From NCBI RefSeq assembly GCF_021531975.1, contig NZ_JAFBIY010000003.1, positions 124,001 to 188,000 on the forward strand: a stretch of 64,000 bases of DNA, written 5' to 3'. Each line of letters starts with the position of its first letter. The first letter of the stretch is position 1. The DNA comes from Faecalicatena contorta (lineage in GTDB: Bacteria > Bacillota > Clostridia > Lachnospirales > Lachnospiraceae). The notes below the pieces were generated by a model. That model was given only the letters and a program-made list of their open reading frames with translations, searched no databases and was not told the origin of the DNA. Shown here one piece after another: positions 16,202-44,637 of the stretch. A program made the translations under genes and the position numbers.

Positions 16202-16536
16202 GAAAACGTAATGTAGCAATTCTTTTTCGGTTGAACAAAAAGGAAGCCGAGGCATTGGATAAGAAAGTAAAGAAAAGCGGACTGAACCGAGAAGCGTACC
16301 TGAGACAGTTAATCTCCGGTGTTGTTCCCAAAGATGCACCGCCGCCAGATTATTATTCTATGATGCGGGAACTTCACAAAATTGGAAATAACTTAAATCA
16401 GATTGCACAGAAAGCACATGTGTTAAATGTGGTAGATGTGCAGCGATACGATCAGGAAGTGCAGAAGTTCAATGAAGCAGTCCGTAAGATTACAGAAGCA
16501 GTAATACTTCCGGAGAAAAACGAATCATGGCAGTGA
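16198..16536 (+). CDS. mobC: MobC-like relaxosome accessory protein
   Basis: A 112-residue ribbon-helix-helix-type mobilization protein. The start is a TTG at 16198 within TTGA overlapping the previous stop, with AAAGGAGATGGAG upstream. The N-terminus RNVAILFRLNKKEAEALDKKV is a typical ribbon strand, and MRELHKIGNNLNQIAQKAH is the conserved MobC helix. MobC proteins bind the origin of transfer and help the relaxase open the DNA. It overlaps the relaxase gene by 10 bases, as expected for partner proteins. Confidence 0.88.
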   Translation: MRKRNVAILFRLNKKEAEALDKKVKKSGLNREAYLRQLISGVVPKDAPPPDYYSMMRELHKIGNNLNQIAQKAHVLNVVDVQRYDQEVQKFNEAVRKITEAVILPEKNESWQ

Positions 16537-17969
16537 CATCAATCTGGAGTATCAAAGGTTGGATAGGAAAAGTAATTAAGTATGCGGAGAACCCGGACAA
16601 GACGAAAGAGAACAATGAAGGGCAGATATCTGAGAATCAATCACAATCCACACAGGGATTAGAGGATGTAATTACCTATGCGGTGAATACTGAAAAGACC
16701 AGACGGGGACAATCTGAATCTATGGAAAGGGAACTTGTCGGAGAATCGGAAGAACTGATGGAACAGTATGTATCTGGAGTTAATTGTGCACCGACAACCG
16801 CCAGAGAAGAAATGATCGCAGTCAAAAAGCGTTTTGGAAAAGAGGACGGAATTGTTGCATTTCATGGATACCAGTCTTTTGCACCGGGAGAATGTAATCC
16901 GGCAATGGCACATGAGATCGGAAAGAAGCTGGCAGAAGAATTGTGGGGCAGTCAGTATCAGGTATTGATTGCAACCCATTTGGATAAGGCAAATCATCTG
17001 CACAATCATTTTGTGGTGAACTCAGTTTCATTCCTTGACGGAAAAAGATACCACAGGACAAATCAGGATTATCGTGATATGCGAATGGTGTCGGACCGTT
17101 TATGTAAAGAATATCAGCTATCGGTTGTGCAACAGCCAGAACAGGGAAAAGGAAAACATTATGTCGAGTGGCAGGCAGAACAGGAAGGAAAGCCGAGTTA
17201 TCACAGCATGGTAAAAGCAGATGTTGATGAAGCAATCCGAAAAGCGAGGACTGAAAAACAGTTCTTTTTTTATTTGCGGGAAAAAGGATATTCTTTTAAG
17301 TTTGGAAAAGACATTACCATTCGTCCAGAAGGGCGGGAGCGTGGTCTGAAGTTAAAGCGTAACTTTGGAGAGAATTATTCACTGGAAGCGATCCGGGTTC
17401 GGATTTTGGAAGAAAATGAATTACCTGCCGAGAAGAAACTTTCGGTTCGTAAGACTTACCGGATTCGGGTATCCGGCAACTTCAAGCAGACAAGAAAGAT
17501 CGGAGGACTTCGGGGATTGTATCTGCATTACTGTTATCTTTTAGGAATCCTACCGAAGAACCGCCCGTCAATGTCTGCCAAACAAATTCATGTATTGTTC
17601 CGAGAGGATTTATTAAAACTGAATACCATTTCCAAAGAGACAAAGCTGCTCTGCCACTATCACATTGATACTGCGGAGCAGCTTTTTTCGTTGAAAGACC
17701 GTTTGCAGAAACAAATGGAGCAGTGTGTGGAGGAGCGGAAACACTTGCGTTATAAGATTCGGGCAAACAGACCGGAAGAAGAAATACAGGAGCTGAAAGA
17801 ACAGATCAAAGGTCTGACAGAAGAAATTGGAACGCTCAGAAGGGAGGTGGTGGTTTGCGATGGGATTGCCGCACGTTCCAAGGTGATTGAAGAAAAATTT
17901 AAGATGGTGCGGGAAGAAAAAGAGAAGAAGGAGGAACAAAGCCATGAACACATCAGGCGAAGCCGCTGA
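16527..17969 (+). CDS. MobP-type relaxase / mobilization nuclease
   Basis: A 480-residue relaxase. The N-terminus (TSIWSIKGWIGKVIKYAENP) is usual for Tn1549-type relaxases. The catalytic centre includes FHGYQSF near residue 113 and the metal-binding HLDKANHLHNHF near residue 151, with three histidines. The C-terminal third is a coiled coil that probably contacts MobC or the coupling protein. The enzyme nicks one strand at the origin of transfer and stays attached to its 5' end. The following gene (pcfB) starts inside its 3' end. Confidence 0.92.
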   Translation: MAVTSIWSIKGWIGKVIKYAENPDKTKENNEGQISENQSQSTQGLEDVITYAVNTEKTRRGQSESMERELVGESEELMEQYVSGVNCAPTTAREEMIAVKKRFGKEDGIVAFHGYQSFAPGECNPAMAHEIGKKLAEELWGSQYQVLIATHLDKANHLHNHFVVNSVSFLDGKRYHRTNQDYRDMRMVSDRLCKEYQLSVVQQPEQGKGKHYVEWQAEQEGKPSYHSMVKADVDEAIRKARTEKQFFFYLREKGYSFKFGKDITIRPEGRERGLKLKRNFGENYSLEAIRVRILEENELPAEKKLSVRKTYRIRVSGNFKQTRKIGGLRGLYLHYCYLLGILPKNRPSMSAKQIHVLFREDLLKLNTISKETKLLCHYHIDTAEQLFSLKDRLQKQMEQCVEERKHLRYKIRANRPEEEIQELKEQIKGLTEEIGTLRREVVVCDGIAARSKVIEEKFKMVREEKEKKEEQSHEHIRRSR

Positions 17970-19830: not shown

Positions 19831-20034
19831 ATGAGCAGTGATACGATTACGTTAGAACTGGATAAATATGAAAGCGGTGTGGTGTTCCATTCCCTGAAAG
19901 ACAAGCGGAATCAGATGCTGAAAGAGGGAAAGGATACGGAGCTTGTCGATGATGTTCTGATGAAAGTCATTGAGAAAATCGAAGTACCGCCGGATAAAGG
20001 AAAGAGAGGACGCAGAAGCCATGAAGAACGATGA
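19831..20034 (+). CDS. Small ICE-backbone protein upstream of virD4
   Basis: A 67-residue protein; ATG 19831 has a GGAAGGAG site. The sequence MSSDTITLELDKYESGVVFH leads into a helix and a basic end (KGKRGRRSHEER). It overlaps the virD4 start by 14 bases, so its translation is probably coupled to coupling-protein synthesis. Function unknown. Confidence 0.7.
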   Translation: MSSDTITLELDKYESGVVFHSLKDKRNQMLKEGKDTELVDDVLMKVIEKIEVPPDKGKRGRRSHEER

Positions 20035-21817
20035 TGAGCAGAGTGGTCTGATACTGGCGTTGCTTGGAATTATCCCGGTTATCTGGTTTGCGTTACTTGT
20101 CGCACCTTATCTTTCGTCTGGTCTTATGGGGATTCTGGAAGGGGTCCCGGAAGCAATGAATCATCCGTTTTCGATTCAGTTATGTGGGGACAGTGTAAAA
20201 ACTGTCCTTATTTTTTTTATGTCTTACGGCATGGGAATCGGGATTTATCTTTCTACTAGGAAACATTACCGACGAGGTGAAGAACATGGTTCTGCAAAAT
20301 GGGGAAATGTGAAGAAAATAAATCGCAGATACAAGGAGAAGCGGTTTACAAAAAATAAGTTGCTGACCATGCATGTGCAGATCAGTTATAACATGAGGAA
20401 ACATTTGCGAAATGTATTGACGGTTGTAATTGGCGGTTCTGGTTCCGGAAAGACCAGATTTTTTGCAAAGCCGAATCTGATGCAGGCGAATACTTCTTTT
20501 GTGGTTTTAGATCCAAAAGGAGAAAATCTAAGAGATACCGGGTATCTTCTGGAAGAAAAAGGTTATGAAGTAAGAGTGCTTGACCTGATAAATATGGAAA
20601 AGAGCCATTGCTATAACCCGTTTGTATATCTGAAGGACGATAACGATGTGCAGAGATTGGTAACGAACCTGTTCAAAGCGACTACACCAAAAGGCAGTCA
20701 GTCTAACGATCCATTTTGGGATACCGCAGCTTCTATGCTGTTGTTGGCACTGGTTTTCTTTCTGAAATATGAAGCACCGGAAGAAGAACAGAATTTCCCG
20801 ATGGTAATGGAAATGTTACGTGCCGGAGAAGTCAGAGAGGACGATGACCAGTACCAGTCACCGCTTGATGAATTGTTTGAACGGTTGGAAATGAAGAACC
20901 CGGAACATATTGCAGTAAAGTATTACAAAGATTATCACTCTGGTAGTGCAAAGACATTAAAGTCCATTCAGATTACACTTGCAGCAAGACTTGAGAAATT
21001 TAACTTATCCAGTCTGGCAGCACTGACTGCAACAGATGATTTAGATCTGCCATCACTGGGAGAGCGGAAAGTGGCTTTATTTGCGTTAATCCCGGACAAC
21101 GACACCAGTTATAACTTTCTGGTGTCAATATTGTATACCCAGTTATTTCAGCAGTTGTTCTATCTGGCAGACCATAAATATGGCGGGAGACTTCCGATTC
21201 ATGTGCATTTCCTCATGGACGAATTTGCAAATGTTTCACTGCCGGATGACTTCGATAAGATTCTGTCCGTTATGCGTTCCAGAGAAGTGTCAGTCAGTAT
21301 TATTTTGCAGAATCTAGCACAGTTAAAAGCACTGTTTGAAAAGCAATGGGAAAGCATTATGGGAAACTGTGACGAATTTTTATATTTAGGTGGCAACGAG
21401 CAGGGGACGCATAAATATGTCAGCGAACTTCTGGGAAAGGCAACGATTGACACGAACACCTATGGAAAGTCAACGGGACATTCCGGGAATTATTCCACCA
21501 ATTATCAGAATACAGGGAGGGAGCTGATGACACCCGATGAAGTTCGCATGTTGGATAACCGATATGCGATTCTTTTTATTCGTGGAGAAAGACCAATTTT
21601 AGACGAGAAGTTCGATATTTTAAAACACCCCAATGTGGGACTTACAACTGACGGGAATGGAAAGCCGTATCTGCATGGAGCAGTTGACCGGGCAGTGGCA
21701 AGTATCTTACTGGGAGACAGTCTGGAGGACGAGTTTGCTGATGATTCACTAGAAAGTGAAGGATACGAATTATTATCTGATGAAGATTTGGAAGAAATTA
21801 TCCAGAAATATGAGTAA
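20021..21817 (+). CDS. virD4: VirD4/TraG-type coupling protein
   Basis: A 598-residue type IV coupling ATPase. Two N-terminal transmembrane helices (residues ~10-35 and ~55-80) anchor it. Walker A is GGSGSGKT near residue 137, VLDPKGEN lies just downstream, and Walker B is HFLMDEFANV. It delivers the relaxase-DNA complex to the transfer channel. ATG 20021 follows AAAGAGAGGA inside the previous gene. A frameshifted fragment of a second copy lies at 45.7-46.0 kb. Confidence 0.93.
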   Translation: MKNDDEQSGLILALLGIIPVIWFALLVAPYLSSGLMGILEGVPEAMNHPFSIQLCGDSVKTVLIFFMSYGMGIGIYLSTRKHYRRGEEHGSAKWGNVKKINRRYKEKRFTKNKLLTMHVQISYNMRKHLRNVLTVVIGGSGSGKTRFFAKPNLMQANTSFVVLDPKGENLRDTGYLLEEKGYEVRVLDLINMEKSHCYNPFVYLKDDNDVQRLVTNLFKATTPKGSQSNDPFWDTAASMLLLALVFFLKYEAPEEEQNFPMVMEMLRAGEVREDDDQYQSPLDELFERLEMKNPEHIAVKYYKDYHSGSAKTLKSIQITLAARLEKFNLSSLAALTATDDLDLPSLGERKVALFALIPDNDTSYNFLVSILYTQLFQQLFYLADHKYGGRLPIHVHFLMDEFANVSLPDDFDKILSVMRSREVSVSIILQNLAQLKALFEKQWESIMGNCDEFLYLGGNEQGTHKYVSELLGKATIDTNTYGKSTGHSGNYSTNYQNTGRELMTPDEVRMLDNRYAILFIRGERPILDEKFDILKHPNVGLTTDGNGKPYLHGAVDRAVASILLGDSLEDEFADDSLESEGYELLSDEDLEEIIQKYE

Positions 21818-23138: not shown

Positions 23139-23159
23139 AAAACAGAGTATGTTATGAGC

Positions 23160-23621: not shown

Positions 23622-24014
23622 TTGGAAGTAAAAATTAACAAGGAAATCAGGGATTACACGGAAGCAATCTTTTTCGGATTGTCCCTAAGACAGTTTATCT
23701 TTTCAGGATTAGCCTGCGGGATTGCCGTTGGGCTTTATTTTTTGCTTCACCCATACATGAGTATGGAAACAGTGAGTTGGATTTGTGTACTGGGAGCTGC
23801 CCCATGTGTAGTGTTCGGGTTTGTAAAATATCATGGAATGACAGCGGAGCAGTTTATCTGGGCATGGATTAAATCGGAAATCCTGATGCCGAAAAAACTG
23901 GTGTTCCGGTCAGAAAATCTTTATTTTGATGCGGTAGAACCAGTCATTAAAAAATATGAGAAAGAAAGTCTGAAGAAGGAGGGACGCAAGAAAAATGATG
24001 AAAACGCTGAGTAA
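23622..24014 (+). CDS. prgI: PrgI/VirB3-like membrane protein
   Basis: A 130-residue protein with start TTG 23622 (GGAGGTG upstream) and an N-terminal MEVKINKEIRDYTEAIFFGLSLRQF typical of PrgI, followed by two transmembrane helices (~28-45 and ~55-72). PrgI/VirB3 proteins sit with VirB4 at the inner-membrane base of type IV secretion systems. It overlaps virB4 by 20 bases. Confidence 0.87.
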   Translation: MEVKINKEIRDYTEAIFFGLSLRQFIFSGLACGIAVGLYFLLHPYMSMETVSWICVLGAAPCVVFGFVKYHGMTAEQFIWAWIKSEILMPKKLVFRSENLYFDAVEPVIKKYEKESLKKEGRKKNDENAE

Positions 24015-26334
24015 TATCTTCAAGCAGGATAAAGAAAAATTTGTAATTCCAAGAAGCGTACAGCAGGTAATTCCCATCGAGACCATCTGGTCAGATGGGA
24101 TTTTTAAAATCGGGAGAAATAAATTTGCACGTACTTATAAATTTACCGATATTAACTATGCAGTGGCGAGCAAAGTTGATAAGGAAACAATGTTCCTGGA
24201 ATATATGGATTTATTAAATTCGTTCGATTGCGGTGGAACAACAAAAATAACGATCAATAATCGTCGCTTGAATAAAGTGGATTTTGAAAAAGCAATTCTG
24301 ATTCCGATGCAGGAGGACGGATTGGATTTATACCGGAAAGAGTATAACAACATGCTTTTAGATAAGGCAACCAGTTCCAACAGCATGGTGCAGGAAAAAT
24401 ATGTGACAGTATCCTGCTATAAGAAAACGATCGAAGAAGCGAGAACGTATTTTGCACGAGTGACAACAGAGCTGAACAGCCATTTTGCAAGACTGGGTTC
24501 CAAATGTGCAGAGGTAAATGGAGAAGATAAGTTACGGATTCTGCATGATTTTTACCGTACAGGAGAAGAATCTGGTTTCCATTTTGATATTCAGGAGAGT
24601 ATGAGAAAAGGGCACAGCTTCAAAGATTATATCTGCCCGGATACTTTTGAATTTGAAAAAGATTATTTCCGCATGGGAGAGCGTTACGGAAGGGTACTCT
24701 TTCTTCGGGAGTATGCTTCTTACATTAAAGACGATATGATAGCAGAACTGACCGACATGAATCGAAATCTGATGTTGAGCATTGATGTGATTCCGGTCCC
24801 GACTGATGAAGCAGTACAGGAAGTGGAAAAACGTCTGCTTGGTGTGGAGACAAATATCACGAACTGGCAGAGACGGCAGAATGCGAATAACAACTTTTCC
24901 GCAGTGATTCCTTATGATTTGGAACAGCAGAGAAAAGAAAGTAAAGAGTTCATGGATGATCTGACTACACGTGACCAGCGTATGATGTTCGGTGTACTGA
25001 CTATGGTGCATACTGCAGAATCGAAAAAGCAGCTTGACGCAGATACGGAAACACTTCTGACAATCGGACGGAAAAAGTTATGCCAGTTTTCGGTTCTGAA
25101 ATTTCAGCAGATGGACGGACTGAATACAGCACTTCCCATCGGACACCGAAAGATTCCGGCAGTCCGCACACTGACTTCGGAGAGTGTAGCAGTGTTGATG
25201 CCATTCCGGGTGCAGGAGATTATGGACGCAGGAGGAATCTATTGCGGTGAAAATGCAATCTCCCATAACTTAATCATGTGTAATAAAGAAAAACTGTTAA
25301 ATCCAAACTCATTCCTTTTAGGAGTACCGGGAAGTGGAAAATCCTTTAATGCAAAAATGCAGATTGTATTCCTGGCACTGGCAACGCAGGACGATATCCT
25401 GATTTGTGATCCAGAGCGAGAGTATGCATCATTAGTTGAAGCAATGGGCGGAGAAGTGGTTCGCATTGCTGCAGGAAGTCGGGACCATATCAATGCAATG
25501 GATATGGTAGACGGATATGGAGATGGCGGTGATCCAGTGATTGAGAAGTCACAGTTTATTTTATCTCTGTTTGAGCAATTGGATAAAAAAGGAATCAATG
25601 CAAAGGAACGTTCCATTATTGACCGATGTGTAGGAGAAGTTTATGAGGAATATCAGCATGGCGGAGCAGTGCCGACTTTGCGGGTGCTGCGTGAAAAATT
25701 TTTAGAACAGGAAGAACCGGAAGCACAGGATTTGGCACTGGTATCAGAATTATTTACCAATGGAAGTCTGGACGCATTTGCACATGAAAGTAATGTTGAT
25801 GTGAATAACCGTATCATGGTATACGACATTCTGGATTTAGGAAAACAGTTAAAGACTATGGGACTTCTGGTAATCACTGATGCAATGTTGAACCGGGTAA
25901 CGGAGAACTGGAAACAGGGAAAACGAACCCATATTTTCTTAGACGAGTTTCATGTAGTATTTGAAAATGAGTATTCCGGAGCATTTTTTAACTCTGCATG
26001 GCGAAGATTTCGTAAGCGTAATGCATTTCCGACAGCAATTACCCAGAACGTGGAATATCTGTTAGATTCTGTTCTTGCAAGTACGATGATTTCCAACAGT
26101 GAGTATATCGTGATGCTTAATCAGGCAGAGCCGGACAGAGCAAAGTTGGCAACACTTCTGAATATCTCCACTGAGCAAATGGGATATATCACAAATGCAG
26201 ATGCCGGTTGCGGTTTGGTGAAATACGGAAGTTCACTTGTACCGTTCGTCAATAGATTTCCGACCAATACAAGGTTGTATAAACTGATGACCACAAAGCC
26301 GGGAGAGGACAGTATCAACCGAGGAAGAATGTAA
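23995..26334 (+). CDS. virB4: VirB4/TraE-type conjugation ATPase
   Basis: A 779-residue ATPase. Walker A GVPGSGKSF near residue 443, Walker B THIFLDEFHVV near 648, and a long N-terminal domain typical of the family. It powers assembly of the transfer channel. The start is one of two adjacent ATGs after AAGGAGGGACG. The gene ends with a clear terminator at 26371, closing the core transfer block. Confidence 0.93.
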   Translation: MMKTLSNIFKQDKEKFVIPRSVQQVIPIETIWSDGIFKIGRNKFARTYKFTDINYAVASKVDKETMFLEYMDLLNSFDCGGTTKITINNRRLNKVDFEKAILIPMQEDGLDLYRKEYNNMLLDKATSSNSMVQEKYVTVSCYKKTIEEARTYFARVTTELNSHFARLGSKCAEVNGEDKLRILHDFYRTGEESGFHFDIQESMRKGHSFKDYICPDTFEFEKDYFRMGERYGRVLFLREYASYIKDDMIAELTDMNRNLMLSIDVIPVPTDEAVQEVEKRLLGVETNITNWQRRQNANNNFSAVIPYDLEQQRKESKEFMDDLTTRDQRMMFGVLTMVHTAESKKQLDADTETLLTIGRKKLCQFSVLKFQQMDGLNTALPIGHRKIPAVRTLTSESVAVLMPFRVQEIMDAGGIYCGENAISHNLIMCNKEKLLNPNSFLLGVPGSGKSFNAKMQIVFLALATQDDILICDPEREYASLVEAMGGEVVRIAAGSRDHINAMDMVDGYGDGGDPVIEKSQFILSLFEQLDKKGINAKERSIIDRCVGEVYEEYQHGGAVPTLRVLREKFLEQEEPEAQDLALVSELFTNGSLDAFAHESNVDVNNRIMVYDILDLGKQLKTMGLLVITDAMLNRVTENWKQGKRTHIFLDEFHVVFENEYSGAFFNSAWRRFRKRNAFPTAITQNVEYLLDSVLASTMISNSEYIVMLNQAEPDRAKLATLLNISTEQMGYITNADAGCGLVKYGSSLVPFVNRFPTNTRLYKLMTTKPGEDSINRGRM

Positions 26335-26370
26335 CTTCAATAATCAATTTAAGAGAATGGCACCGGAAAT

Positions 26371-26394
26371 CGTCACAATTTGTGGCGTTTTTTT
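26371..26394 (+). terminator. Rho-independent terminator after virB4
   Basis: CGTCAC pairs with GTGGCG over a 5-base loop, followed by seven Ts. It should reduce read-through from the transfer operon into the next genes. Confidence 0.75.
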
Positions 26395-26416
26395 AGTGCC
26401 AGAAAAGGAGAAAAAT

Positions 26417-26824: not shown

Positions 26825-26849
26825 ATAAAGATTCAAATGGAGGAAAGCG

Positions 26850-28571
26850 ATGGATCGTAAGATAAAAACACGCCAAGTCCATAAGGATATTAAAATATTA
26901 GATAAGACAGCTACGGTGACAGACCATGTTAAGCAGTCTTATGTCAGAACAAAAGAAAATGTCATGCAATCGACGGAAAATTCCAGTGATAGAGAGAATA
27001 ATCCGGTAGGTTATGCAGAAGATGCGGCCAGCGAGTATGCTGACCGCATCTTTCACGATACAGGGTATCAGGTACGCAGACAGGCAGGGAAGATTATTGA
27101 ACGGAAGAAAGAGAAAGCTTCTGTTTCTTCGGCAGGCGAAGAAACAGTTTACCAGCCGAAAGAACAAATCCGACCAGTACCGCCTTCAGGCGGAGAAAAG
27201 GCACAGGATCAGGGAAAAGAACTTGCTGTCAAAAAAATCAAGACCATTGAGCGAGATAAAAGAACCATCAAGACCGGGAGAGCATCGGAACAGGTAGTAA
27301 AGAATACTGGAAAAGGTACCATCAAGACTTCTGGGAAAGTGGTCAAGACTGCAGAACAAACAGCAAGGACCAGTATCAAAACATCGGAGCAGACAGCAAA
27401 TGCTTCTGTCCGGGCAATGCATTATTCCATGAAAAAAGCAGAAAAAGCAGTGCAGGCAGCAAGACAGACAGCACGAGATACCACGATTGCAGTGAAAAAG
27501 ACAGCAAAAGCGGTAACACATGCGATAAAAGCGTTGATTGAAGCTACAAAAGCATTACTGAGTGCATTGACTGCAGGCGGTTGGATTGCGGTTATGATTT
27601 TGATTATCGTCATTTTATTTGGTGGATTTCTATGCATGACAGGTGGGGATAATTCCAGTACGGTTTCTTCGATTAGTGCAGAAGTAGAAGCATACGAACC
27701 ACTAATCCGTCAGTATGCAAAGCAATATGGCATTGGAGAGTATGTGGAACTAATCAAAGCCATTATGATGCAGGAATCAGGTGGGAGAGGACTTGACCCG
27801 ATGCAGTGTTCAGAAGGGAGCTTTAATACAAAATACCCCAAACAGCCGAATGGAATCACTGATCCAGAGTATTCGATTTCTTGCGGAGTGCAGGAGATAA
27901 AAAGCTGTCTGGAACGTGCAGGAGTAAAAAATCCTCTGGATATGGAAAATATTAAACTGGCATTGCAAAGTTACAACTACGGAAATGGATATTTGGAATG
28001 GGCGAAAGCCAGAGGTGGATATACCCTTGCAAATGCAGCAGAATTTTCCGATATGATGGCACAGAGAATGGGGTGGAGCAGTTATGGAGATAAGCAGTAT
28101 GTGCCGCATGTGCTTCAGTATTATGCATTTGGAAGAATCCCGACAGGCATCGGTAATCAGGCAATCGTTCAGGTAGCAGCATCTCAGGAAGGAAAAGGCG
28201 GAACAACCTACTGGAGTTGGTATGGTTTTGGAAGCCGGGTAGAGTGGTGCGCCTGCTTTGTGTCCTGGTGTGCAGACCAGAGCGGTTATATCCAAAGTGG
28301 AGTCATTCCGAAATTCTCTCTTTGTTCGGACGGTGTCAGGTGGTTTGAAAGTAAAGGCAGGTTCCGGGACGGAAGTTATACACCGGCGGCAGGAGATATA
28401 ATTTTCTTTGACTGGGGGAACAATGGAACGATTGATCACGTTGGAATTGTGGAGAGCGTCAGCGGTGGAACAGTGAATACCATTGAAGGCAACAGTGGGG
28501 ACAAGGTGGCGAGACGAAATTACAGTATCGGAAGCAGTAATATCTATGGATACGGTGTTCCGGCATATTAA
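26850..28571 (+). CDS. CwlT-like two-domain cell-wall hydrolase of the transfer apparatus
   Basis: A 573-residue protein. Residues 1-~230 are a cytoplasmic Lys/Thr-rich region with repeated TxxKTxxQTA heptads. A transmembrane helix lies at ~248-272. The first extracellular domain is a lysozyme-like muramidase/transglycosylase with Glu309 in MMQESGGR and NYGNGY further on. The last domain is a CHAP/NlpC-type peptidase with WCACFVSWC (catalytic Cys near 467) and DHVGIVE (His). Such enzymes open peptidoglycan for the conjugation channel, as CwlT does in ICEBs1. Its 3' end marks the left border of the cargo. Confidence 0.9.
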   Translation: MDRKIKTRQVHKDIKILDKTATVTDHVKQSYVRTKENVMQSTENSSDRENNPVGYAEDAASEYADRIFHDTGYQVRRQAGKIIERKKEKASVSSAGEETVYQPKEQIRPVPPSGGEKAQDQGKELAVKKIKTIERDKRTIKTGRASEQVVKNTGKGTIKTSGKVVKTAEQTARTSIKTSEQTANASVRAMHYSMKKAEKAVQAARQTARDTTIAVKKTAKAVTHAIKALIEATKALLSALTAGGWIAVMILIIVILFGGFLCMTGGDNSSTVSSISAEVEAYEPLIRQYAKQYGIGEYVELIKAIMMQESGGRGLDPMQCSEGSFNTKYPKQPNGITDPEYSISCGVQEIKSCLERAGVKNPLDMENIKLALQSYNYGNGYLEWAKARGGYTLANAAEFSDMMAQRMGWSSYGDKQYVPHVLQYYAFGRIPTGIGNQAIVQVAASQEGKGGTTYWSWYGFGSRVEWCACFVSWCADQSGYIQSGVIPKFSLCSDGVRWFESKGRFRDGSYTPAAGDIIFFDWGNNGTIDHVGIVESVSGGTVNTIEGNSGDKVARRNYSIGSSNIYGYGVPAY

Positions 28572-28722
28572 GAAAGGGGGGCTTGTCGGGATATTGGTAA
28601 GTCCCCTGAAATCTATAATAAGTCTTAAAGGGAAAAATAAAAAAGATACTTCCATATATTGAAAGGTTTGTTAAAATGAGAAGAAAGAATAAATTTAACA
28701 GCACAAATGGGAAGGAAAATAT

Positions 28723-30597
28723 ATGTTTATATCGAAATTATCAATTGATGGATATCGAAATTGTTGTGAAAAATCTCAAATATCATTTAATAAAGGATTG
28801 AATATTTTAGTGGGAGAAAATGCATCTGGAAAGTCTACAATTATTGATGCGTTAAGATTAATTTTAAAAGATCAAGAGCAGTCATATATAACAGAGGATG
28901 ACTTTTATAAATCCTTTACTCAGGATATAAAAAATAATAATATTCGAATTGATGTTACGTTGGAGAATTTGAATCAAGAAGAAAAAATCACGTTCTTGTC
29001 GTGGTGTAATGCTAATTTTGATGCAGAATTGCATTTAGAAGTGGAAAGCAATCCGAGTCCGAGAGGATATTTTAAAAAAAGTATTTGGGGAGGCAAATCC
29101 AAAGCAAGTGCGTTTGAAGAAGATACTTTTGATTTTATAAATATAATTTATTTACCTGCATTGAGAAATGCAGAGGAAAAACTAACAAATGGTAGAAAAT
29201 CAAGACTTGCACTTTTATTAAAGCATCAATATAAAACAGAAGAAAGAAAAAATGAGCTTGTGGAAGCTTTTGATACTTTTAATAAATCAGTAATAAAAAA
29301 TAAGGATAATAAATTTGATGAGATTACAAAAGCAAAGAAGGATATAAATACAGCCATGGAAAATGCTATGGGTAATGTTTTTGGACAAAGTATAAATCTA
29401 CAATTTACAGAAAATTCATTTTCATCTATTCTTCAAAATATAAAAATGGTCTTTTTCCCGGATATGGGAGAAATGAATGATGAGAAATTTAGAGATGTGG
29501 CGATTAATAGTTTGGGGTATAATAATTTATTATATATTGCAACGGTATTTGCTGAGTTAGAGGCAATAGATAGTAATTTGTTTACGATATTGTTAATTGA
29601 AGAACCTGAAGCGCATCTACACCCACAAATTCAAGCGAAGTTAATAAAATATCTGCAAAAATTATCAGATGAAAAAGATAATTTGCAAATAATATTAACG
29701 ACACATTCGGCGGTTGTTGCGTCATCGGTTAGTATTGACACTATCATATACGTTACAGGAAAAAATACAGGAATTGATGTAAGAAAATTATCTGATTTTG
29801 AACTAAGTGAAGATATAAAAAATTATTTAAATAGATGGATGGATATAACAAAATCTACATTGCTTTTTTCAAAGGGTGTAATTTTGGTAGAGGGAATTTG
29901 TGAAGCAATGTTAATACCAGTTTTTGCGCATAAAGTATTAGAAGAATATAACAAAAAACGGACAGTAAAAATACCAAATTCATTAGAAGAGGCTGGGGTA
30001 ACAGTTGTTAATATTAATGGAATAAATTTTAAATATTTCTATCCGTTATTTTGTGATACAGATTGGGAAGAGGATAGATTACCGATTAGATGTAGTGGTA
30101 TTACAGATAAGGATCCTGTAGCTGATATTGAAAAAGATGAAAAGGGAAGAATTATTAAAAAAGAAGAGAAGTATCCAATTGAAGGTGAGAATATAATTGG
30201 AGGAAATAAAGCAATTGAATTAGTTGAAAGCATTAATAGTACAAAGCAGGCAAGGTTATATGTTGCATCGTTAAAAACATTTGAATATGATTTAGCAATG
30301 AATGGAAATTGTTCTTTAATGGCTGAGATATTATATGAAAATTGGCCAAACGATGGAAAAAAAGAAAATAGTGTGAAAAATAAATGCAAAAAAATAAAAG
30401 AGAAAACCGCATATAAAGAGGATGATGAAATGCGTGAAGATGCGAAATATATATATACGCATATTGATTGCGATGAAATCGGAAAAGGAGCTTTTTCACA
30501 GGCTTTATTAGAAAAAATAGAATCGGGACAGACAATAATTGTGCCGCAATACATAAAAAAAGCAATTATTTGGGCATGTGGAGGAGATTGTGAATAA
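28723..30597 (+). CDS. GajA-like OLD-family ATPase-nuclease (Gabija defence)
   Basis: A 624-residue OLD nuclease. The ATPase half has Walker A GENASGKST near residue 35 and Walker B LIEEPEAHLHPQ near 291. The C-terminal Toprim nuclease has ILVEGICEA near 390 (metal-binding Glu) and ITDKDP near 462 (DxD). It is followed with an 8-base overlap by a UvrD-like helicase, the pairing that defines Gabija. GajA cuts DNA when nucleotide pools fall during phage infection. The gene is markedly A+T-rich with AAA/AAT/ATA codons unlike the ICE backbone, a sign of separate acquisition. GAAGGAAAATAT precedes ATG 28723. Confidence 0.86.
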   Translation: MFISKLSIDGYRNCCEKSQISFNKGLNILVGENASGKSTIIDALRLILKDQEQSYITEDDFYKSFTQDIKNNNIRIDVTLENLNQEEKITFLSWCNANFDAELHLEVESNPSPRGYFKKSIWGGKSKASAFEEDTFDFINIIYLPALRNAEEKLTNGRKSRLALLLKHQYKTEERKNELVEAFDTFNKSVIKNKDNKFDEITKAKKDINTAMENAMGNVFGQSINLQFTENSFSSILQNIKMVFFPDMGEMNDEKFRDVAINSLGYNNLLYIATVFAELEAIDSNLFTILLIEEPEAHLHPQIQAKLIKYLQKLSDEKDNLQIILTTHSAVVASSVSIDTIIYVTGKNTGIDVRKLSDFELSEDIKNYLNRWMDITKSTLLFSKGVILVEGICEAMLIPVFAHKVLEEYNKKRTVKIPNSLEEAGVTVVNINGINFKYFYPLFCDTDWEEDRLPIRCSGITDKDPVADIEKDEKGRIIKKEEKYPIEGENIIGGNKAIELVESINSTKQARLYVASLKTFEYDLAMNGNCSLMAEILYENWPNDGKKENSVKNKCKKIKEKTAYKEDDEMREDAKYIYTHIDCDEIGKGAFSQALLEKIESGQTIIVPQYIKKAIIWACGGDCE

Positions 30598-32587
30598 GGA
30601 AGAATATCAAGAGAAAATAGCGAACATAGTATGTGGAAAATCAGAAAAAATTACTTGCGAGGAATGCTATATATTAGCAGATGGGAATGTTTGCAAAAAT
30701 TTTAAAGAATGTAGAATATCAGAAAAAACAGAAGAACAACTTGAATATGTAATGACATCAATAAAAGAAAATGTTTTTTTGAAAGCATGTGCGGGAAGTG
30801 GAAAGACAGAGGTAATAGGATTAAAAGCCGCATATGAAATGAAAAAATGGAATTCGTATAATCAGGGAATAGCAGTATTGACGTTTACGAATGATGCTAC
30901 AGATGTAATTATAGATCGTGTAAAGCAATTTACGGGGAGGAATGCTGTTTATCCACATTATATAGGAACTTTAAGCAGTTTTATTCATAGTTATATTGTT
31001 CAACCGTTTGCATACACCCTTACGGGATTTGAGGGAAAAGATGAAGATTTTTCATTTAATATAATTGATCGTACCGTACCGGTATATTCAAATTCTTGGT
31101 TAAATACGTATAAGTGTAGGGTATCATATTTAGAAGCAAATAATAGATGGTCTTCGATTTTTGCGCATCAGATTGGATATGATATAGAAAAGAAAGATTT
31201 TTATTTTTATATAGGAAAAAATAAAATGGAATGGCTTTCGGAATATTATTTAAAGCCGGCTGTGCAAGCGTTTATTAAGGAAAAGAGAATTCATAATGCA
31301 AAATTTTGGGAAATGAAGTATTTAAGAAAATGTTTTAGGGAATGTAAAGAAGTTTTCTGGAAAGCTGGTTTTTCGACATTTGATGATTTGAACATTTTGG
31401 CTATAAGATTGTTGAAAAGAGATATTGGGCATAAGATTGCATTACGATTTCCGGTGATTTTTATTGATGAATGTCAGGATTTATCAGGAAATGAACTGAG
31501 GGTACTTAAAGCATTACAAGAACAAGGGTGTATAGTGCATTGTATTGGAGATTTAAATCAGAGTATTTATGAATTTAAGCGTGTAGATCCTGATGAGATA
31601 TTGAAACATGTGGGAGAATATAAACAAAAAGAATTACATATTAATTTTAGGAGTTGTAAAGAGATTGTTGCTTTATCAGAAAGATTAATAAATGTCAATG
31701 AAATTGAAAGTGCAAATTTAAATAATTTATTTGGAAGTAATTCATTGGTTTATTTTGAATATGATAAGCCTGATGATGCAATAAATAGCTATTACAAAAT
31801 ATTAAAAAAATTTGATTTTCTTGAAAAAGAAAATCGAATTTTAGTGCGTCAAAATTCGATGAAGTTGCAATTGGAAAAATCAACACGTGATGGGATGGAT
31901 GAAAAAGAACCGCTTATTGTAGCAACTCAACTTTGGAAAGATGGAACACCACAACAAATGAAGATAGCATTAGAATTGGCGGGAAAACAAATTTCAAAAT
32001 GGTTAGGTAACGGAAGAACAAAAGCTAATTATTATTGCCCTAAAGAAATTTCGTCAGTTTTTTATTGGAGAGTCTTTTTGATGAATGTATTAAACAAAAT
32101 TTTGAGTTCCAAAAAATTGTCCAATTTTAACGTAACTTGCGGGAAATGGCATGAATATGCTAAGAAAGAATTAGGGATTATTTTGGAAGAAAAATATCCA
32201 ATTATTGCTGATTATGATGAAATTAAGGATAGAGAATTTGAAAAAATGATTAATGGAAAAAGTTATAGAGTGAGCAATGGGAATAAAGACGTTGTTATAG
32301 GGGAAATAGATGAAAAAGTAAAAAATGCTATTCCAATTATGACTATTCATGGAAGTAAAGGGTGTACATTTGATACTACTTTGGTGATTTCTACTAAAAA
32401 TGCAAGAAGCATAGGGGGACATTGGAAGGAGCATTGGCTCAATGGAACTGGAGAGGCAAAGAGAATAGGGTATGTAGCGAGTACACGTGCTAAATATTTA
32501 CTAGTATGGGGAGTGCCCAAAATGAATTCAGAAGATAAAGAATTATTAAAATCGTATGGATTTGTTAATGGTGAAGATTTGATTTAA
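30590..32587 (+). CDS. GajB-like UvrD-family helicase with N-terminal Cys cluster
   Basis: A 665-residue superfamily-1 helicase. I choose GTG 30590 because GGAGGA ends five bases upstream; GTG 30578 lies within that site. Helicase motifs seen are CAGSGKTEVIG (I), FIDECQDLSGNE (II), IGDLNQSIYEFK (III), HINFRSCKEI (IV), TIHGSKGCTFDTTLV (V) and GYVASTRAKYLL (VI). Before motif I is a Cys array, C-x7-C-x2-C-x8-C-x5-C, absent from the canonical GajB as I know it, which is also shorter (about 500 residues). It may bind zinc or an Fe-S cluster. Forms an operon with the OLD nuclease gene. Confidence 0.84.
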   Translation: MNKEEYQEKIANIVCGKSEKITCEECYILADGNVCKNFKECRISEKTEEQLEYVMTSIKENVFLKACAGSGKTEVIGLKAAYEMKKWNSYNQGIAVLTFTNDATDVIIDRVKQFTGRNAVYPHYIGTLSSFIHSYIVQPFAYTLTGFEGKDEDFSFNIIDRTVPVYSNSWLNTYKCRVSYLEANNRWSSIFAHQIGYDIEKKDFYFYIGKNKMEWLSEYYLKPAVQAFIKEKRIHNAKFWEMKYLRKCFRECKEVFWKAGFSTFDDLNILAIRLLKRDIGHKIALRFPVIFIDECQDLSGNELRVLKALQEQGCIVHCIGDLNQSIYEFKRVDPDEILKHVGEYKQKELHINFRSCKEIVALSERLINVNEIESANLNNLFGSNSLVYFEYDKPDDAINSYYKILKKFDFLEKENRILVRQNSMKLQLEKSTRDGMDEKEPLIVATQLWKDGTPQQMKIALELAGKQISKWLGNGRTKANYYCPKEISSVFYWRVFLMNVLNKILSSKKLSNFNVTCGKWHEYAKKELGIILEEKYPIIADYDEIKDREFEKMINGKSYRVSNGNKDVVIGEIDEKVKNAIPIMTIHGSKGCTFDTTLVISTKNARSIGGHWKEHWLNGTGEAKRIGYVASTRAKYLLVWGVPKMNSEDKELLKSYGFVNGEDLI

Positions 32588-32643
32588 TATAAAAGTCAAA
32601 AAAATTATGTAAGTAAGTATTCTTTTAAAACATAATATTTTAC

Positions 32644-32708: not shown

Positions 32709-34820
32709 ATGAAAAGAAAACGGAAAAAGCAAAGCACCCAAAAATCTTACACTTGTAAGATTTTTGGGCTGATAGTGGCTATAACAGTAATTGCTGTTTC
32801 AGGAGGTATTTTATTAAAAAGGACTATAACGGAATCACCAGAAGATACACTTATGGAATATATGAACCATATTGAAAAAAAGGAATATGAAGTAATGTAT
32901 ACTATGATAGATTCAGATGAAAAAGTATATCTGACAAAAGAAGAATACATACAAAAAAATTCTAAGATATACGAAGGAATAGAGGTCAGTGACATTAAAA
33001 TCAGTCATATAGCTGTGAAAGAGAAAAAAGCAGATACAGTTACGCTTTCGTATGAAACATCATGTAATACAATTGCCGGAACAATACAATTTGACAATAT
33101 GGCGGAACTGAAGAAGACGAAACAGGGATATAAATTAGTATGGCAGGATAGCCTGATTTTTCCAGATTTAGAGAGTGATGATAAAATAAGTGTTACTACA
33201 TCAAAAGCGGAGAGAGGAAAAATATTAGACCGAGATGGTAAAATGCTTGCAGGAAAAGGAGTAGCAACATCAGTTGGTATTATACCGGGAAAGCTGGAAG
33301 ACAGGAATGTATCTATTGAAAAAATAGCGGAGTTATTAGAGATAGATGTGGAAACAATAAATAACAAACTCACAGCAAAGTGGGTAAAAGAAGATTCTTT
33401 TGTACCAATTGAAACTATTCCGAAAGTAGAAGAAATAGATTTAATGAAAATACAGCCAGAAGAAAAGACACTTGAGGAGCAGGATTGTCAGAATAAACTT
33501 TTGGAAATTCCAGGGGTTATGCTATCAGATGTGGAAGTTAGAACCTATGAGTTAGGGGAAGCAGCAGCTCATTTAATTGGTTATGTACAGTCTGTAACAG
33601 CAGAAGATTTGGAAAATCATCCAGGGGAAGGATATTCAGCTGAAAGTGTAATCGGAAGATTTGGGGTGGAAAAGTTATACGAAAAGCAATTAAAAGGAAA
33701 AGATGGTTGTGATATAAAGATTTTGGATCGTGATGGGGAAGTAAAAGAGGTTCTTGCAAGTATTTTTAAAGAAGATGGTATGGATATAAGATTAACGATA
33801 GATTCCGATTTGCAAAAATCATTATACGAGCAGTTTAAAGAAGATCCGGGGTGTTCTGTCGCAATGAATCCTTATACGGGAGAAGTATTGGCTTTGGTAA
33901 GTACCCCATCTTATGATAATAATGAATTTATACGGGGCTTATCATCAGAGAAATGGACATCATTAAACGAAGATGAAAAGAAGCCATTATATAATCGTTT
34001 TCGTCAAGTATGGTGTCCTGGCTCAACATTTAAACCAGTTGTGGCAGGAATTGGGTTGAAAACGGGAAGCATAGATCCAAAAGAAGATTTTGGAAATGAA
34101 GGTTTGGCATGGCAGAAAGACTCGTCTTGGGGATCTTATCAAGTGACAACACTTCATGAATATGAACCGGTTATTATGAAAAATGCAATTATCTATTCTG
34201 ATAATATTTATTTTGCAAAGGCAGCTCTTAAAATTGGTAGTGAGAATTTCATGAATACTTTAAATGAAATAGGATTTAATCAGAATATGCCGTTTGAGAT
34301 TGCGATGCAGGAATCAACATATTCCAATACAGATAAAATAGAAACAGAAATACAATTGGCAGATAGTGGTTATGGGCAAGGGCAGATTCTTGTAAATCCA
34401 TTACATCTGGCAAGTATTTATACTTTATTTTTAAATGAAGGGAATATGATAAAACCGTATTTGAAATACAAAGAAGAAGCATCTGGTGAAACATGGATAG
34501 AAAATGCGTTTAGCGAAGAAAATGTAGAAGAAATTATGCAAGGGGTGGAAGGTGTTGTAAATGATCCGGAAGGAACCGGATATGCTGCACATCGTGACGA
34601 TATTTTGCTTGCTGGAAAAACAGGGACAGCCGAGTTGAAGGCAACGAAAGAAGATACTTCTGGCAAAGAAATCGGGTGGTTTTCGGTGTTTACGGCAGAT
34701 AAAAGCGTGGACAAACCAATTCTTCTTATCAGTATGGTTGAGAATGTGAAAGGAATCGGTGGAAGTGGTTATGTTGTTAAAAAGGATGCAACCGTATTGG
34801 AGGAATATTTTGAAAAATAA
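32709..34820 (+). CDS. MecA/PBP2a-like class B penicillin-binding protein
   Basis: A 703-residue low-affinity-PBP candidate. After a basic start and one membrane anchor (~19-38) comes an NTF2-like MecA-N domain (~45-150), a PBP dimer/allosteric domain (~170-340) and a transpeptidase domain with Ser439 in PGSTFKP, SDN at 497-499 and KTGT starting at Lys637. This domain order is that of staphylococcal PBP2a. Association with blaR1, blaI and operators argues strongly that it is an inducible resistance transpeptidase rather than a housekeeping enzyme. A 32-bp palindromic operator is embedded in codons 10-20. GAAAGGGG precedes the ATG. Confidence 0.9.
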   Translation: MKRKRKKQSTQKSYTCKIFGLIVAITVIAVSGGILLKRTITESPEDTLMEYMNHIEKKEYEVMYTMIDSDEKVYLTKEEYIQKNSKIYEGIEVSDIKISHIAVKEKKADTVTLSYETSCNTIAGTIQFDNMAELKKTKQGYKLVWQDSLIFPDLESDDKISVTTSKAERGKILDRDGKMLAGKGVATSVGIIPGKLEDRNVSIEKIAELLEIDVETINNKLTAKWVKEDSFVPIETIPKVEEIDLMKIQPEEKTLEEQDCQNKLLEIPGVMLSDVEVRTYELGEAAAHLIGYVQSVTAEDLENHPGEGYSAESVIGRFGVEKLYEKQLKGKDGCDIKILDRDGEVKEVLASIFKEDGMDIRLTIDSDLQKSLYEQFKEDPGCSVAMNPYTGEVLALVSTPSYDNNEFIRGLSSEKWTSLNEDEKKPLYNRFRQVWCPGSTFKPVVAGIGLKTGSIDPKEDFGNEGLAWQKDSSWGSYQVTTLHEYEPVIMKNAIIYSDNIYFAKAALKIGSENFMNTLNEIGFNQNMPFEIAMQESTYSNTDKIETEIQLADSGYGQGQILVNPLHLASIYTLFLNEGNMIKPYLKYKEEASGETWIENAFSEENVEEIMQGVEGVVNDPEGTGYAAHRDDILLAGKTGTAELKATKEDTSGKEIGWFSVFTADKSVDKPILLISMVENVKGIGGSGYVVKKDATVLEEYFEK
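32737..32768. promoter_or_regulatory. 32-bp perfect palindrome with BlaI-type core inside the pbp coding region
   Basis: CCCAAAAATCTTACA (32737-32751) is exactly mirrored at 32754-32768 around a two-base centre. Its core CTTACACTTGTAAG is the same operator motif as at the promoter 80 bases upstream. It encodes residues around SYTCKIFG. It can act as a second operator (looping or roadblock) and, in RNA, as a hairpin near the start codon. Confidence 0.8.
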
Positions 34821-36009: not shown

Positions 36010-36017
36010 GGGGCAAT

Positions 36018-37250: not shown

Positions 37251-37262
37251 TCAGTAGAGAAG

Positions 37263-37320
37263 AAATAAATAAAGAGAACTGATAACGGGAAATTATGCTA
37301 TCAGTTCTCTTTATTTATTT
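37263..37320. terminator. Bidirectional terminator with 22-bp perfect stem
   Basis: The 22-base arm 37263-37284 (core AAAGAGAACTGATA) is perfectly complementary to 37299-37320 over a 14-base loop. It has A-rich and T-rich flanks on each side, so it terminates both the pbp operon and the converging blaR1 transcript. The blaR1 stop codon lies inside the stem. Confidence 0.92.
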
Positions 37321-43389: not shown

Positions 43390-44637
43390 ATGGCAAAAGC
43401 ATTACCAAGAGGAGTTAGAGAGAAGAACGGTTCATATGAAGCAAGAGCGGTTGTAAACGGAATTAGAATCAATTTATATGGAACAGATCTAAACGAACTG
43501 ATGGAAGAATTTGAAAAGGCAAAAGAAAATGCCAGGGATACATTGGATTATAGAAAAACAAGAATCACATTGAATGAGTGGTTTGAAGAATGGTTTTCAG
43601 AGGTAAAGCAACACCGGGTGAAAGAAACAAGTATTGCACCGATGAAAAATAATTTCAAAAGAACATTTGGTTTTTATATCGGGTCAATGAAGCTGAAAGA
43701 TATTAAACCGTTGGATGTTCAGAGAGCATTAAATGCAATGGAACAGAATCATGTATCGCACAGTGCAATGCGAGAAGCATTGGGGCGTTTAAGAGAATGC
43801 TTAGATTTTGCATTAGGAAACCAATTGATTAAAGTAAATCCATGTTTGATTGTAGAAGTACCATGGACATTTAAACAATCAAAAGAAGAAATTGCATTAA
43901 CCCAGGAAGAACAGGACAATTTCCTGAGTGAGATGGAGGATAGCTGGTATAAAGAAATGTTCTATTTCATGTGTCTGACAGGTGTCCGAGTTGGAGAACT
44001 TGGTGGAATGAAATGGAGCGATATAGATTTTAAAAAGAAAGTAGTTCACGTCAGACGTTCCTTGAGTTGTAGTTATTATAATGGAGAAAAGAGAATGATG
44101 CTTGTAACTCCTAAAACGGTAAATTCAATCAGAGAGATTCCGTTTTTAGGAGAAATGGAAGAAATATTAAAAGCTCAGAGGAAAAAACAGAATAAGCTAA
44201 AAGAGGAACTGGGCAGTCGCTGGAGAAGTACGGATGATTTAAAAGATTTGGTATTTACAACAGGTATGGGAAGTCCCTGCGTCAGATATGTTGTAGAGAA
44301 AGAAATAAAAAAGGCTTTAAAGAGAATGAGAGAAAAAGAAGGAGTTCTGGCAGTACAAGAAAATAGAGAACCCAGAGAGATCAGGGACTTCCACCCACAT
44401 AGTTTACGACATACGTTTGCTACAAGATGCTTTGAAAAGAAAATGGAACCGAAGGTTGTCCAGAGGTTGATGGGACATTCGAGTATCAGCATCACATTAA
44501 ACATTTATACACATGTCTTGGATAATATAATGGAAGAAGAAATTAAGAAATTTGGAGTGGCGAAGACACAGACACCGGAAGAATATTATAATGAAGAAAT
44601 TCGAAGGGCTAGAATTTCGGCTATGAGTCACTGCTGA
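43390..44637 (+). CDS. int: Tyrosine integrase of the ICE
   Basis: A 415-residue tyrosine recombinase. The N-terminal ~50 residues (GVREKNGSYEARAVVNGIRINLYGTDL) form a Tn916-like arm-binding domain; a SAM-like core-binding domain spans ~65-160. Catalytic residues are Arg201 (TGVRVGELGG), His337 and Arg340 (HSLRHTF), His363 (MGHSS) and the nucleophile Tyr373 (LNIYTH). All are present, so the element should be able to integrate and excise. CAGGAGG leader. It is the last gene of the ICE. Confidence 0.95.
   Translation: MAKALPRGVREKNGSYEARAVVNGIRINLYGTDLNELMEEFEKAKENARDTLDYRKTRITLNEWFEEWFSEVKQHRVKETSIAPMKNNFKRTFGFYIGSMKLKDIKPLDVQRALNAMEQNHVSHSAMREALGRLRECLDFALGNQLIKVNPCLIVEVPWTFKQSKEEIALTQEEQDNFLSEMEDSWYKEMFYFMCLTGVRVGELGGMKWSDIDFKKKVVHVRRSLSCSYYNGEKRMMLVTPKTVNSIREIPFLGEMEEILKAQRKKQNKLKEELGSRWRSTDDLKDLVFTTGMGSPCVRYVVEKEIKKALKRMREKEGVLAVQENREPREIRDFHPHSLRHTFATRCFEKKMEPKVVQRLMGHSSISITLNIYTHVLDNIMEEEIKKFGVAKTQTPEEYYNEEIRRARISAMSHC

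What the first reader, a model, noticed from the sequence alone, without database searches (positions are those of the whole stretch)
28723..32587. Gabija-type defence pair with an extended, Cys-bearing helicase
OLD-Toprim nuclease followed by a UvrD helicase with an 8-base overlap defines Gabija. The helicase is about 665 residues rather than about 500 and has a C-x7-C-x2-C-x8-C-x5-C array ahead of Walker A, so it may be a distinct subtype with a metal or Fe-S centre. It is ICE cargo with foreign base composition.
Basis: partly seen in the sequence, partly recalled or inferred. Interest (0 to 1): 0.68.

Follow-up and report, generated by a model that had tools for sequence, protein, structure and literature searches.

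The report
Gabija defence operon with cysteine-module helicase
This is a genuine Gabija anti-phage operon carried by a mobile element; its helicase partner belongs to a broad branch of Gabija that carries a small conserved four-cysteine module, probably a metal site, which the solved Gabija structures lack.

Summary
GajA (28723-30597) and GajB (30590-32587, GTG start) overlap by 8 bases and match PADLOC GajA and GajB at E 7.5e-217 and 2.1e-171. The Cys array C15-x7-C23-x2-C26-x8-C35-x5-C41 is exact. The pair is a cassette of about 4.07 kb in an ICE: three relatives have the same flanks without it. Length is not distinctive: 21 of 24 GajB models listed are 540 positions or longer. The Cys module is the real difference. 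In a tree of 82 GajB built without the module, 34 carry it and the label needs 3 changes, which fits one gain and two losses, each of the whole site. The last core position lies 8 residues before the Q-motif Gln in 31 of 31 modules. B. cereus GajB aligns only from model residue 48-49 and is reported to lack the Q motif (PMC10822852). The module has no significant match in Pfam or PDB. I file it as Gabija, new variant. A metal site ([4Fe-4S] slightly over Zn) that steadies or gates GajB's ATP pocket is my best guess; neither was tested.

The parts
28572..32641 (.). Gabija cassette, 4070 bases, replaced by 63 bp of other sequence in the three relatives examined
   Evidence: blastn of the window against L123, L124, L125: left match ends at 28571 and right match starts at 32642 in all three
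28723..30597 (+). gajA: OLD-family ATPase plus Toprim nuclease, 624 aa
   Evidence: PADLOC GajA PDLC00091 E 7.5e-217; Pfam AAA_15 and OLD-like_TOPRIM; E390, E394, G433, D462, D464, E521, D523, K588 identical in 39 of 39
30580..30586 (+). Shine-Dalgarno-like GGAGGAG for gajB inside the 3' end of gajA
   Evidence: read from the sequence
30590..32587 (+). gajB: UvrD-like SF1A helicase/ATPase, 665 aa from GTG
   Evidence: PADLOC GajB PDLC00129 E 2.1e-171; Pfam UvrD-helicase and UvrD_C; AlphaFold2 model mean pLDDT 90.1
30632..30712 (+). codons C15 to C41 of GajB: the Cys array; core C15, C26, C35, C41
   Evidence: alignment of 31 modules; predicted helical, no strand
30728..30748 (+). GajB Q-motif residues 47-53, Gln50 invariant
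   Evidence: 59 of 59 GajB; 8 residues after the last core position in 31 of 31
30785..30808 (+). GajB Walker A (residues 66-73)
   Evidence: G69, G71, K72, T73 in 59 of 59
31466..31480 (+). GajB DECQD Walker B (residues 293-297)
   Evidence: D293, E294, Q296, D297 in 59 of 59
16527..17969 (+). ICE relaxase
   Evidence: Pfam Relaxase E 1.3e-37
19970..21817 (+). ICE coupling protein (VirD4/TraG type)
   Evidence: Pfam T4SS-DNA_transf E 2.3e-67
23995..26334 (+). ICE conjugation ATPase (VirB4/TraG-like)
   Evidence: Pfam P-loop_TraG E 3.6e-9
26850..28571 (+). ICE cell-wall hydrolase (lysozyme-like plus CHAP); left flank of the cassette
   Evidence: Pfam Lysozyme_like and CHAP
43390..44637 (+). 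tyrosine integrase, probably near the right end of the ICE
   Evidence: Pfam Phage_integrase E 3.1e-30; ends not mapped

Best explanation
It is a complete Gabija operon, an optional cassette of an integrative conjugative element. As in B. cereus Gabija, a GajA tetramer with ATPase and Toprim nuclease domains should bind GajB, whose nucleotide hydrolysis helps control when and on what DNA GajA cuts (published for BcGabija, inferred here). In this GajB branch an N-terminal helical module of about 46 residues holds four core cysteines (C15, C26, C35, C41) and runs at fixed spacing into the Q motif that reads the adenine of ATP. Most likely the cysteines bind a metal centre ([4Fe-4S] slightly favoured over Zn) that caps and steadies the adenine pocket, so that GajB activity depends on the centre being intact. 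Shown: Gabija membership by sequence, conservation, distribution on one branch, all-or-none loss, position beside the Q motif. Inferred: metal, cap, gating.
For: Gabija: profiles; profile hits on solved GajB (E about 7e-22) and GajA (E 5.2e-15); nuclease residues corresponding to those named for BcGajA in PMC10822852 and PMC10781630; a GajA-like ORF, or a piece of one, directly upstream of gajB in 86 of 89 loci looked at. Module: 34 of 82 GajB carry at least 4 Cys before the Q motif, 48 carry 0-2, none 3; 3 changes on a tree that leaves the module out, against a mean of 26 in shuffles. The five rows inside the branch without it (L017, L018, L019, L022, L053) keep 0, 0, 0, 1 and 0 Cys. x5 between the last two core positions and 8 residues to Gln50 in 31 of 31. 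BcGajB lacks the Q motif (passages of PMC10822852) and the N-terminal adenine-binding elements (discussion of PMC10681800). No strand predicted in the module, and no C-x2-C pair among the core Cys; knuckle-type zinc sites usually have such pairs (recalled).
Against: No metal was observed. Only 22 of 31 modules have all four core Cys (the other 9 reach 4 or more Cys with others), so the ligand set is inferred. pLDDT averages only 68-69 in residues 31-40. Relatives inside the branch do without the Cys, so the centre is not needed by every such GajB. Some carriers are Paenibacillus or Cohnella, not strict anaerobes, which speaks against a simply oxygen-labile site. In 6 of 9 pairs the module changes faster in amino acids than the rest of GajB, in 3 slightly slower. 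The branch that holds all 34 rows has support 85 in a quick tree, below the starred level.
Confidence: 0.6

Rival explanations
1. The four cysteines bind a structural Zn(II): a passive brace that holds the N-terminal helix against the helicase core, with no sensing role.
For: Small Cys4 modules are most often zinc sites (recalled). Weak Pfam matches of single members include zinc-binding families (ANCHR B-box 0.025 in two members, C2H2_13 0.011 in one). Found in Paenibacillaceae as well as anaerobes.
Against: The core lacks the C-x2-4-C pairs usual in zinc knuckles (recalled); no beta-hairpin predicted. The Pfam matches are no better than those of unrelated families in the same list.
Confidence: 0.35
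2. An oxygen- or redox-sensitive [4Fe-4S] cluster gates GajB nucleotide hydrolysis, making this Gabija responsive to cluster damage or redox change during infection.
For: Many named carriers belong to groups that I know as anaerobic (Clostridia, Methanothrix, Methanoregula, Syntrophomonas; names, lifestyle recalled). One of the two losses lies among Paenibacillus and Cohnella relatives. Position directly at the Q motif.
Against: Cohnella fermenti, C. herbarum and Paenibacillus mellifer keep the Cys. Methanosarcina and Thermoanaerobacterium carry GajB without the module, on another branch. Only two losses, so no statistical test is possible.
Confidence: 0.25
3. The cysteines are free thiols or a disulfide redox switch without metal.
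For: Cys only; no conserved His or Asp partner seen by eye in the alignment.
Against: Four or more Cys kept together in 34 rows and lost together; a cytoplasmic disulfide would need only two.
Confidence: 0.1
4. The Cys array is a chance cluster without function.
For: 505 of 20000 shuffles of this one protein reach it.
Against: C26 kept in 31 of 31 modules from Bacillota, archaea, Planctomycetota and others; Cys kept through TGT/TGC changes.
Confidence: 0.02
5. The pair is an OLD nuclease plus UvrD helicase system outside Gabija.
For: Single-sequence phmmer lists no Bc GajA or GajB in the PDB at E 1. In profile searches PcrA, UvrD and Rep rank above GajB, and OLD 6P74, PtuA and others rank above GajA. 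Foldseek ranks PcrA and UvrD above GajB.
Against: PADLOC GajA 720 bits and GajB 570 bits, while the best model with another name for GajB among the 25 shown gives 111 bits; a class 2 OLD protein with a helicase partner is how Gabija is defined (passages of PMC10568477).
Confidence: 0.03

Closest known systems
Gabija of Bacillus cereus VD045 (BcGajA 578 aa, BcGajB 494 aa; PDB 8SM3, 8J4T, 8JQB)
   Same: GajA with OLD ATPase plus Toprim and corresponding catalytic residues; SF1A UvrD-like GajB with Walker A and DEXQD; the two encoded together
   Different: BcGajB lacks the N-terminal module and, as published, the Q motif; here a Cys4 module precedes a conserved Q motif, and GajB is 171 residues longer
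PADLOC GajB PDLC00129 and GajA PDLC00091 branch of Gabija
   Same: Match over the whole helicase and the whole nuclease
   Different: The GajB match begins at residue 37 of this protein, just before the last core Cys; in seven further proteins of the Cys branch (six with the module, one that lost it) it begins at residues 29-45, so the profile does not reach the first three core positions
Gabija of Pseudomonas aeruginosa PA14 on PAPI-1 (PMC12407980, passages seen)
   Same: Gabija as cargo of a conjugative element
   Different: Its GajB was not compared here; the Pseudomonas GajB in my tree lack the module
UvrD/PcrA/Rep helicases
   Same: Fold; best Z 27.2, rmsd 3.6 over 415 residues
   Different: Housekeeping helicases without a GajA partner; a Cys module of this kind is not known to me from them (recalled)
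Fe-S helicases and nucleases (XPD/DinG, AddB, Dna2, Cas4)
   Same: Cysteine cluster attached to a nucleic-acid motor or nuclease (recalled)
   Different: No sequence or fold match of the module was returned; spacing C-x6-11-C-x7-10-C-x5-C differs from theirs as recalled

Membership tests
Gabija | GajA-type OLD protein: ABC ATPase plus Toprim | tested here: met
   PADLOC GajA E 7.5e-217; AAA_15, AAA_21, OLD-like_TOPRIM above Pfam cut-offs
Gabija | Complete Toprim nuclease site (BcGajA E379, E383, D432, D434, D511, D513, K541) | tested here: met
   Window E390, E394, D462, D464, E521, D523, K588, each identical in 39 of 39 GajA; D511 would correspond to E521; correspondence drawn by motif and order, not by a structural alignment; Bc residues from PMC10822852
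Gabija | GajB-type UvrD-like helicase encoded next to gajA | tested here: met
   PADLOC GajB E 2.1e-171; 8-base overlap with gajA
Gabija | Helicase Walker A and DEXQD box | tested here: met
   GSGKT at residues 69-73 and DECQD at 293-297
Gabija | GajB fold like solved GajB | tested here: met
   8sm3_B Z 18.7 over 355 residues (rmsd 7.9), 8tk1_F Z 18.5 over 210 (rmsd 2.2); UvrD and PcrA score higher, so the fold alone does not single out GajB
Gabija | 4:4 GajA-GajB complex | not testable with these tools
   only single chains can be predicted
Gabija | Protection from phages | not testable with these tools
   needs bench work
Canonical (B. cereus-like) GajB | Starts at the first RecA domain without N-terminal module | tested here: not met
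   47-48 extra residues with a Cys4 motif; Bc chains align from model residue 48-49
Fe-S helicase | Bound [4Fe-4S] cluster | not testable with these tools
   needs spectroscopy and iron analysis
Fe-S helicase | Known Fe-S domain sequence or fold | tested here: inconclusive
   no significant Pfam or PDB sequence match and no fold match for the module alone; small model of mean pLDDT 81.9
Zinc-finger protein | Known zinc-binding domain | tested here: inconclusive
   zinc-type Pfam matches only in single members at E 0.011-0.42 and one in two members at 0.025, mixed with unrelated families
Integrative conjugative element cargo | Relaxase, coupling protein, conjugation ATPase and integrase around the cassette | tested here: met
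   empty site in the three relatives examined; attachment sites were not mapped

The most novel reading that the evidence does not exclude
A wide, largely anaerobe-borne branch of Gabija carries an Fe-S centre built into the ATP site of GajB, so that nucleotide sensing by this antiviral nuclease is gated by cluster integrity (redox state, oxygen or iron supply).
Probability: 0.22. Interest if true: 0.7.

Novelty: new variant of a known kind. Interest (0 to 1): 0.42.

Why it matters
GajB's role in Gabija is disputed: the B. cereus protein is reported to lack the Q motif and to show no helicase activity. A wide branch that keeps the Q motif and adds a cysteine site beside it offers a natural comparison. 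If metal is bound, it would be the first Cys-held metal centre reported for Gabija as far as my searches reach (open-licence papers only), and the PADLOC GajB profile now omits most of the module.

Tried and rejected
Length as a subtype mark: rejected, since 21 of the 24 GajB models among the 25 rows shown (43 matched) are 540 positions or longer.

Start codon at 30578 (ORF list): rejected in favour of 30590.

Known family for the module: none found. PDB hmmsearch 0 hits at E 10; Pfam 0 for the window member and 16 scattered families among 31 members, best E 0.011; Foldseek best E 2.8; VIA-align none at Z 2 among 8 chains.

Module in other proteins: of 398 phylum genomes 36 matched at E 0.1. 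The 4 strong matches (E 1.1e-16 or better) are the four GajB genomes; the next is 6.1e-4. I translated 16 weak loci (L130-L145) in one frame only and recognised the ORF in three (L136-L138): proteins of about 260 aa with a Cys-rich stretch, DUF116-like by recall. I treat this as shared Cys content, not homology.

A class-wide search with PADLOC PDLC00129 at E 1e-60 matched 2 of 291 genomes: the window's own and one (L147) whose GajB has no module.

Direct search with the single protein found no relative in genome contigs. With alignment A1, one search found 338 relatives and kept the best 80, chosen through two peptide patterns; so 34 of 82 is not a frequency among GajB at large.

Oxygen lifestyle test: not run, because two losses give no power. 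AU test of the Cys branch: not run.

Papers: listings with starts of abstracts; passages of PMC10781630, PMC10681800, PMC10822852, PMC10568477, PMC12839542, PMC12407980; the discussion section of PMC10681800. None of the passages that I saw describes Cys, Zn or Fe-S in GajB.
Full report
What is there. GajA runs 28723-30597 (624 aa) and GajB 30590-32587 (665 aa from a GTG). The GTG at 30590 has GGAGGAG just upstream, written inside the last codons of gajA, and is level with the start codons of close homologues. The overlap is 8 bases. The Cys array C15-x7-C23-x2-C26-x8-C35-x5-C41 is exact.

Is it Gabija? Yes by sequence. PADLOC GajA and GajB score 720 and 570 bits; the best model with another name for GajB among the 25 shown scores 111. 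Pfam agrees on domains. The solved B. cereus proteins are too far for phmmer (none listed at E 1), but profiles of relatives reach them: GajB 8SM3, 8J4T, 8JQB and 8IUD at E 7e-22 to 9e-22, GajA 8J4T at 5.2e-15. In both searches other families rank higher: PcrA, UvrD and Rep above GajB (best 7e-27), OLD 6P74 (2.3e-21), PtuA and others above GajA. The BcGajA nuclease set in PMC10822852 (E379, E383, D432, D434, D511, D513, K541; passages) has likely counterparts E390, E394, D462, D464, E521, D523, K588, each identical in 39 of 39 GajA aligned here. The GajB model (mean pLDDT 90.1) matches UvrD best (Z up to 27.2) and BcGajB 8SM3 at Z 18.7 over 355 residues. By fold alone it is UvrD-like; membership rests on the profiles and the GajA partner.

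Where it sits. The window holds an integrative conjugative element: relaxase, coupling protein, conjugation ATPase, cell-wall hydrolase and, at 43390-44637, an integrase. The hydrolase gene was sought in 200 genomes of the family: 35 matched, the own genome included. I looked at the three closest others (92-95% DNA identity: G555, G586, G499). In each, 63 bp stand in place of window 28572-32641. The left match is 3.7 kb in G555 but only 954 and 830 bases in G586 and G499; the right match covers the MecA_N-type penicillin-binding protein, two DUF6070 proteins and BlaR1-like and BlaI-like genes in G586 and G499 (98.7%), and the first 2.2 kb, to the end of the fetched stretch, in G555 (97.9%). 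So Gabija is a separate cassette. Its GC is 29-31% against 41.6% for window 12000-28571. This kind of GajB is rare in the host's family: at E 1e-30, 1 of 299 genomes, the window's own, and 4 of 398 in the phylum, own included.

The cysteine module. I took 89 GajB candidates: the window, 3 loci, 2 plasmid records, 1 phage record, the 80 loci and 2 of the 20 loci. I dropped 7: one duplicate (L014) and six fragments or wrong frames (L027, L032, L035, L044, L078, L090), leaving 82. Of the dropped, L032 and L035 show the Cys array and L078, with a readable N-terminus, does not. A GajA-like ORF or piece ends directly upstream of gajB in 86 of the 89; none was found in L027, L044 and L090, and it is in two pieces in L024, L040 and L070. 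In the 82, 34 have 4 or more Cys in the 35 residues before the Q motif and 48 have 0-2; none has 3 (for short GajB this stretch can include codons ahead of the start). A maximum-likelihood tree (quick search, SH-aLRT only) built from the Q motif onward, so without the module, needs 3 changes of the label, which fits one gain and two losses; shuffled labels need 26 on average. The branch that holds all 34 has support 85, not starred, so a single origin is likely, not certain. Losses are whole: L017, L018, L019, L022 and L053 keep 0, 0, 0, 1 and 0 Cys.

Anatomy of the module. I aligned 31 of the 34 (left out: L008, identical to L016 in the tree; L015, its near copy; and L010). C26 is Cys in 31, C15 in 29, C35 in 28, C41 in 26, C23 in 6; 22 of 31 have all four core Cys and the other 9 still have 4 or more Cys in all. 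Core spacing is C-x6-11-C-x7-10-C-x5-C, and the last core position is always 8 residues before the Q-motif Gln, which is invariant in 59 of 59 GajB of alignment A3. Over 9 pairs of relatives 18 of 37 shared Cys codons differ as TGT against TGC while Cys stays; the module as a whole changes faster than the rest of GajB in 6 pairs and slightly slower in 3. The prediction shows helices 3-15, 23-29 and 33-36 and no strand; alone, helices 3-14 and 23-30. Confidence dips to 68-69 at residues 31-40. Neither sequence nor fold search names it.

Why it may matter for mechanism. Two papers state that BcGajB lacks the Q motif or N-terminal adenine-binding elements (PMC10822852 passage; PMC10681800 discussion), and the latter relates a form with five more N-terminal residues that has robust ATPase. 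The present branch has the Q motif, and places a cysteine site in fixed register with it. BcGajB contacts GajA through its 1A and 1B domains (PMC10822852). I therefore infer that the module caps the adenine pocket, perhaps close to the GajA side. Whether GajB then senses nucleotide depletion (model from the BcGabija work) or helps recognise DNA ends free of RecBCD (PMC12407980, passages) cannot be told here.

Metal or not. Whole-site loss, at least four Cys, and no other conserved ligand by eye favour a metal centre. No C-x2-C pair in the core and a helical setting lean to [4Fe-4S]; the generic frequency of Cys4 zinc sites leans the other way (both recalled). Many named carriers belong to groups that I know as anaerobic (Clostridia, Syntrophomonas, Methanothrix, Methanoregula; names), but Cohnella and Paenibacillus carriers exist, Methanosarcina and Thermoanaerobacterium GajB lack the module, and two losses give no test. 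I keep Fe-S and Zn nearly even.

Novelty. Gabija is known, and Gabija on conjugative elements is known (PA14, PMC12407980). The conserved Cys4 module appears undescribed in the open-licence papers that I could search, and the PADLOC GajB profile starts only just before its last core position. Hence a new variant of a known kind, of moderate interest until the metal is measured.

Noticed in passing
window 32709-39516: Neighbouring ICE cargo: a penicillin-binding protein with MecA_N domain, two DUF6070 proteins and a divergent BlaR1/BlaI-like regulator pair; about 98.7% identical in two other genomes of the family and 97.9% over its start in a third. The BlaR1-like protein has both the M56 peptidase and the transpeptidase-type sensor domain.
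   Followed up: partly
window 30570-30597: The GajA C-terminus WACGG(D), the majority sequence among GajA, is also the DNA that holds the Shine-Dalgarno of gajB (GGA GGA); its conservation may partly serve translation of gajB.
   Followed up: no
window 14411-14848: ORF of 145 aa with 17 Cys, 7 of them within 27 residues, no Pfam match at E 0.001.
   Followed up: no
L011:85-3075 and L011:10027-11523: Nearest relative of this Gabija (Ca. Fimimorpha faecalis) sits between a type I restriction HsdR-like gene and a MobA/MobL-like relaxase (both named by eye), so perhaps another mobile defence site.
   Followed up: partly
L008 and L009: Plasmid relatives also lie near defence-type genes: a Wadjet JetD-domain protein upstream in Cohnella herbarum, a DEAD/DEAH helicase upstream in Acinetobacter nosocomialis.
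   Followed up: no
L037, L039, L040, L043, L073: A sub-branch of the Cys module (Dorea, Clostridium, Eubacterium) has Ser at the last core position and extra Cys near residue 22 or just after the Ser, suggesting that the ligand set shifts.
   Followed up: partly
L136, L137, L138: Weak matches of the module profile fall on proteins of about 260 aa with a Cys-rich stretch (DUF116-like by recall).
   Followed up: partly
window 622-3696: Large surface protein with T-Q ester bond, SpaA and weak thioester domains at the start of the window.
   Followed up: no
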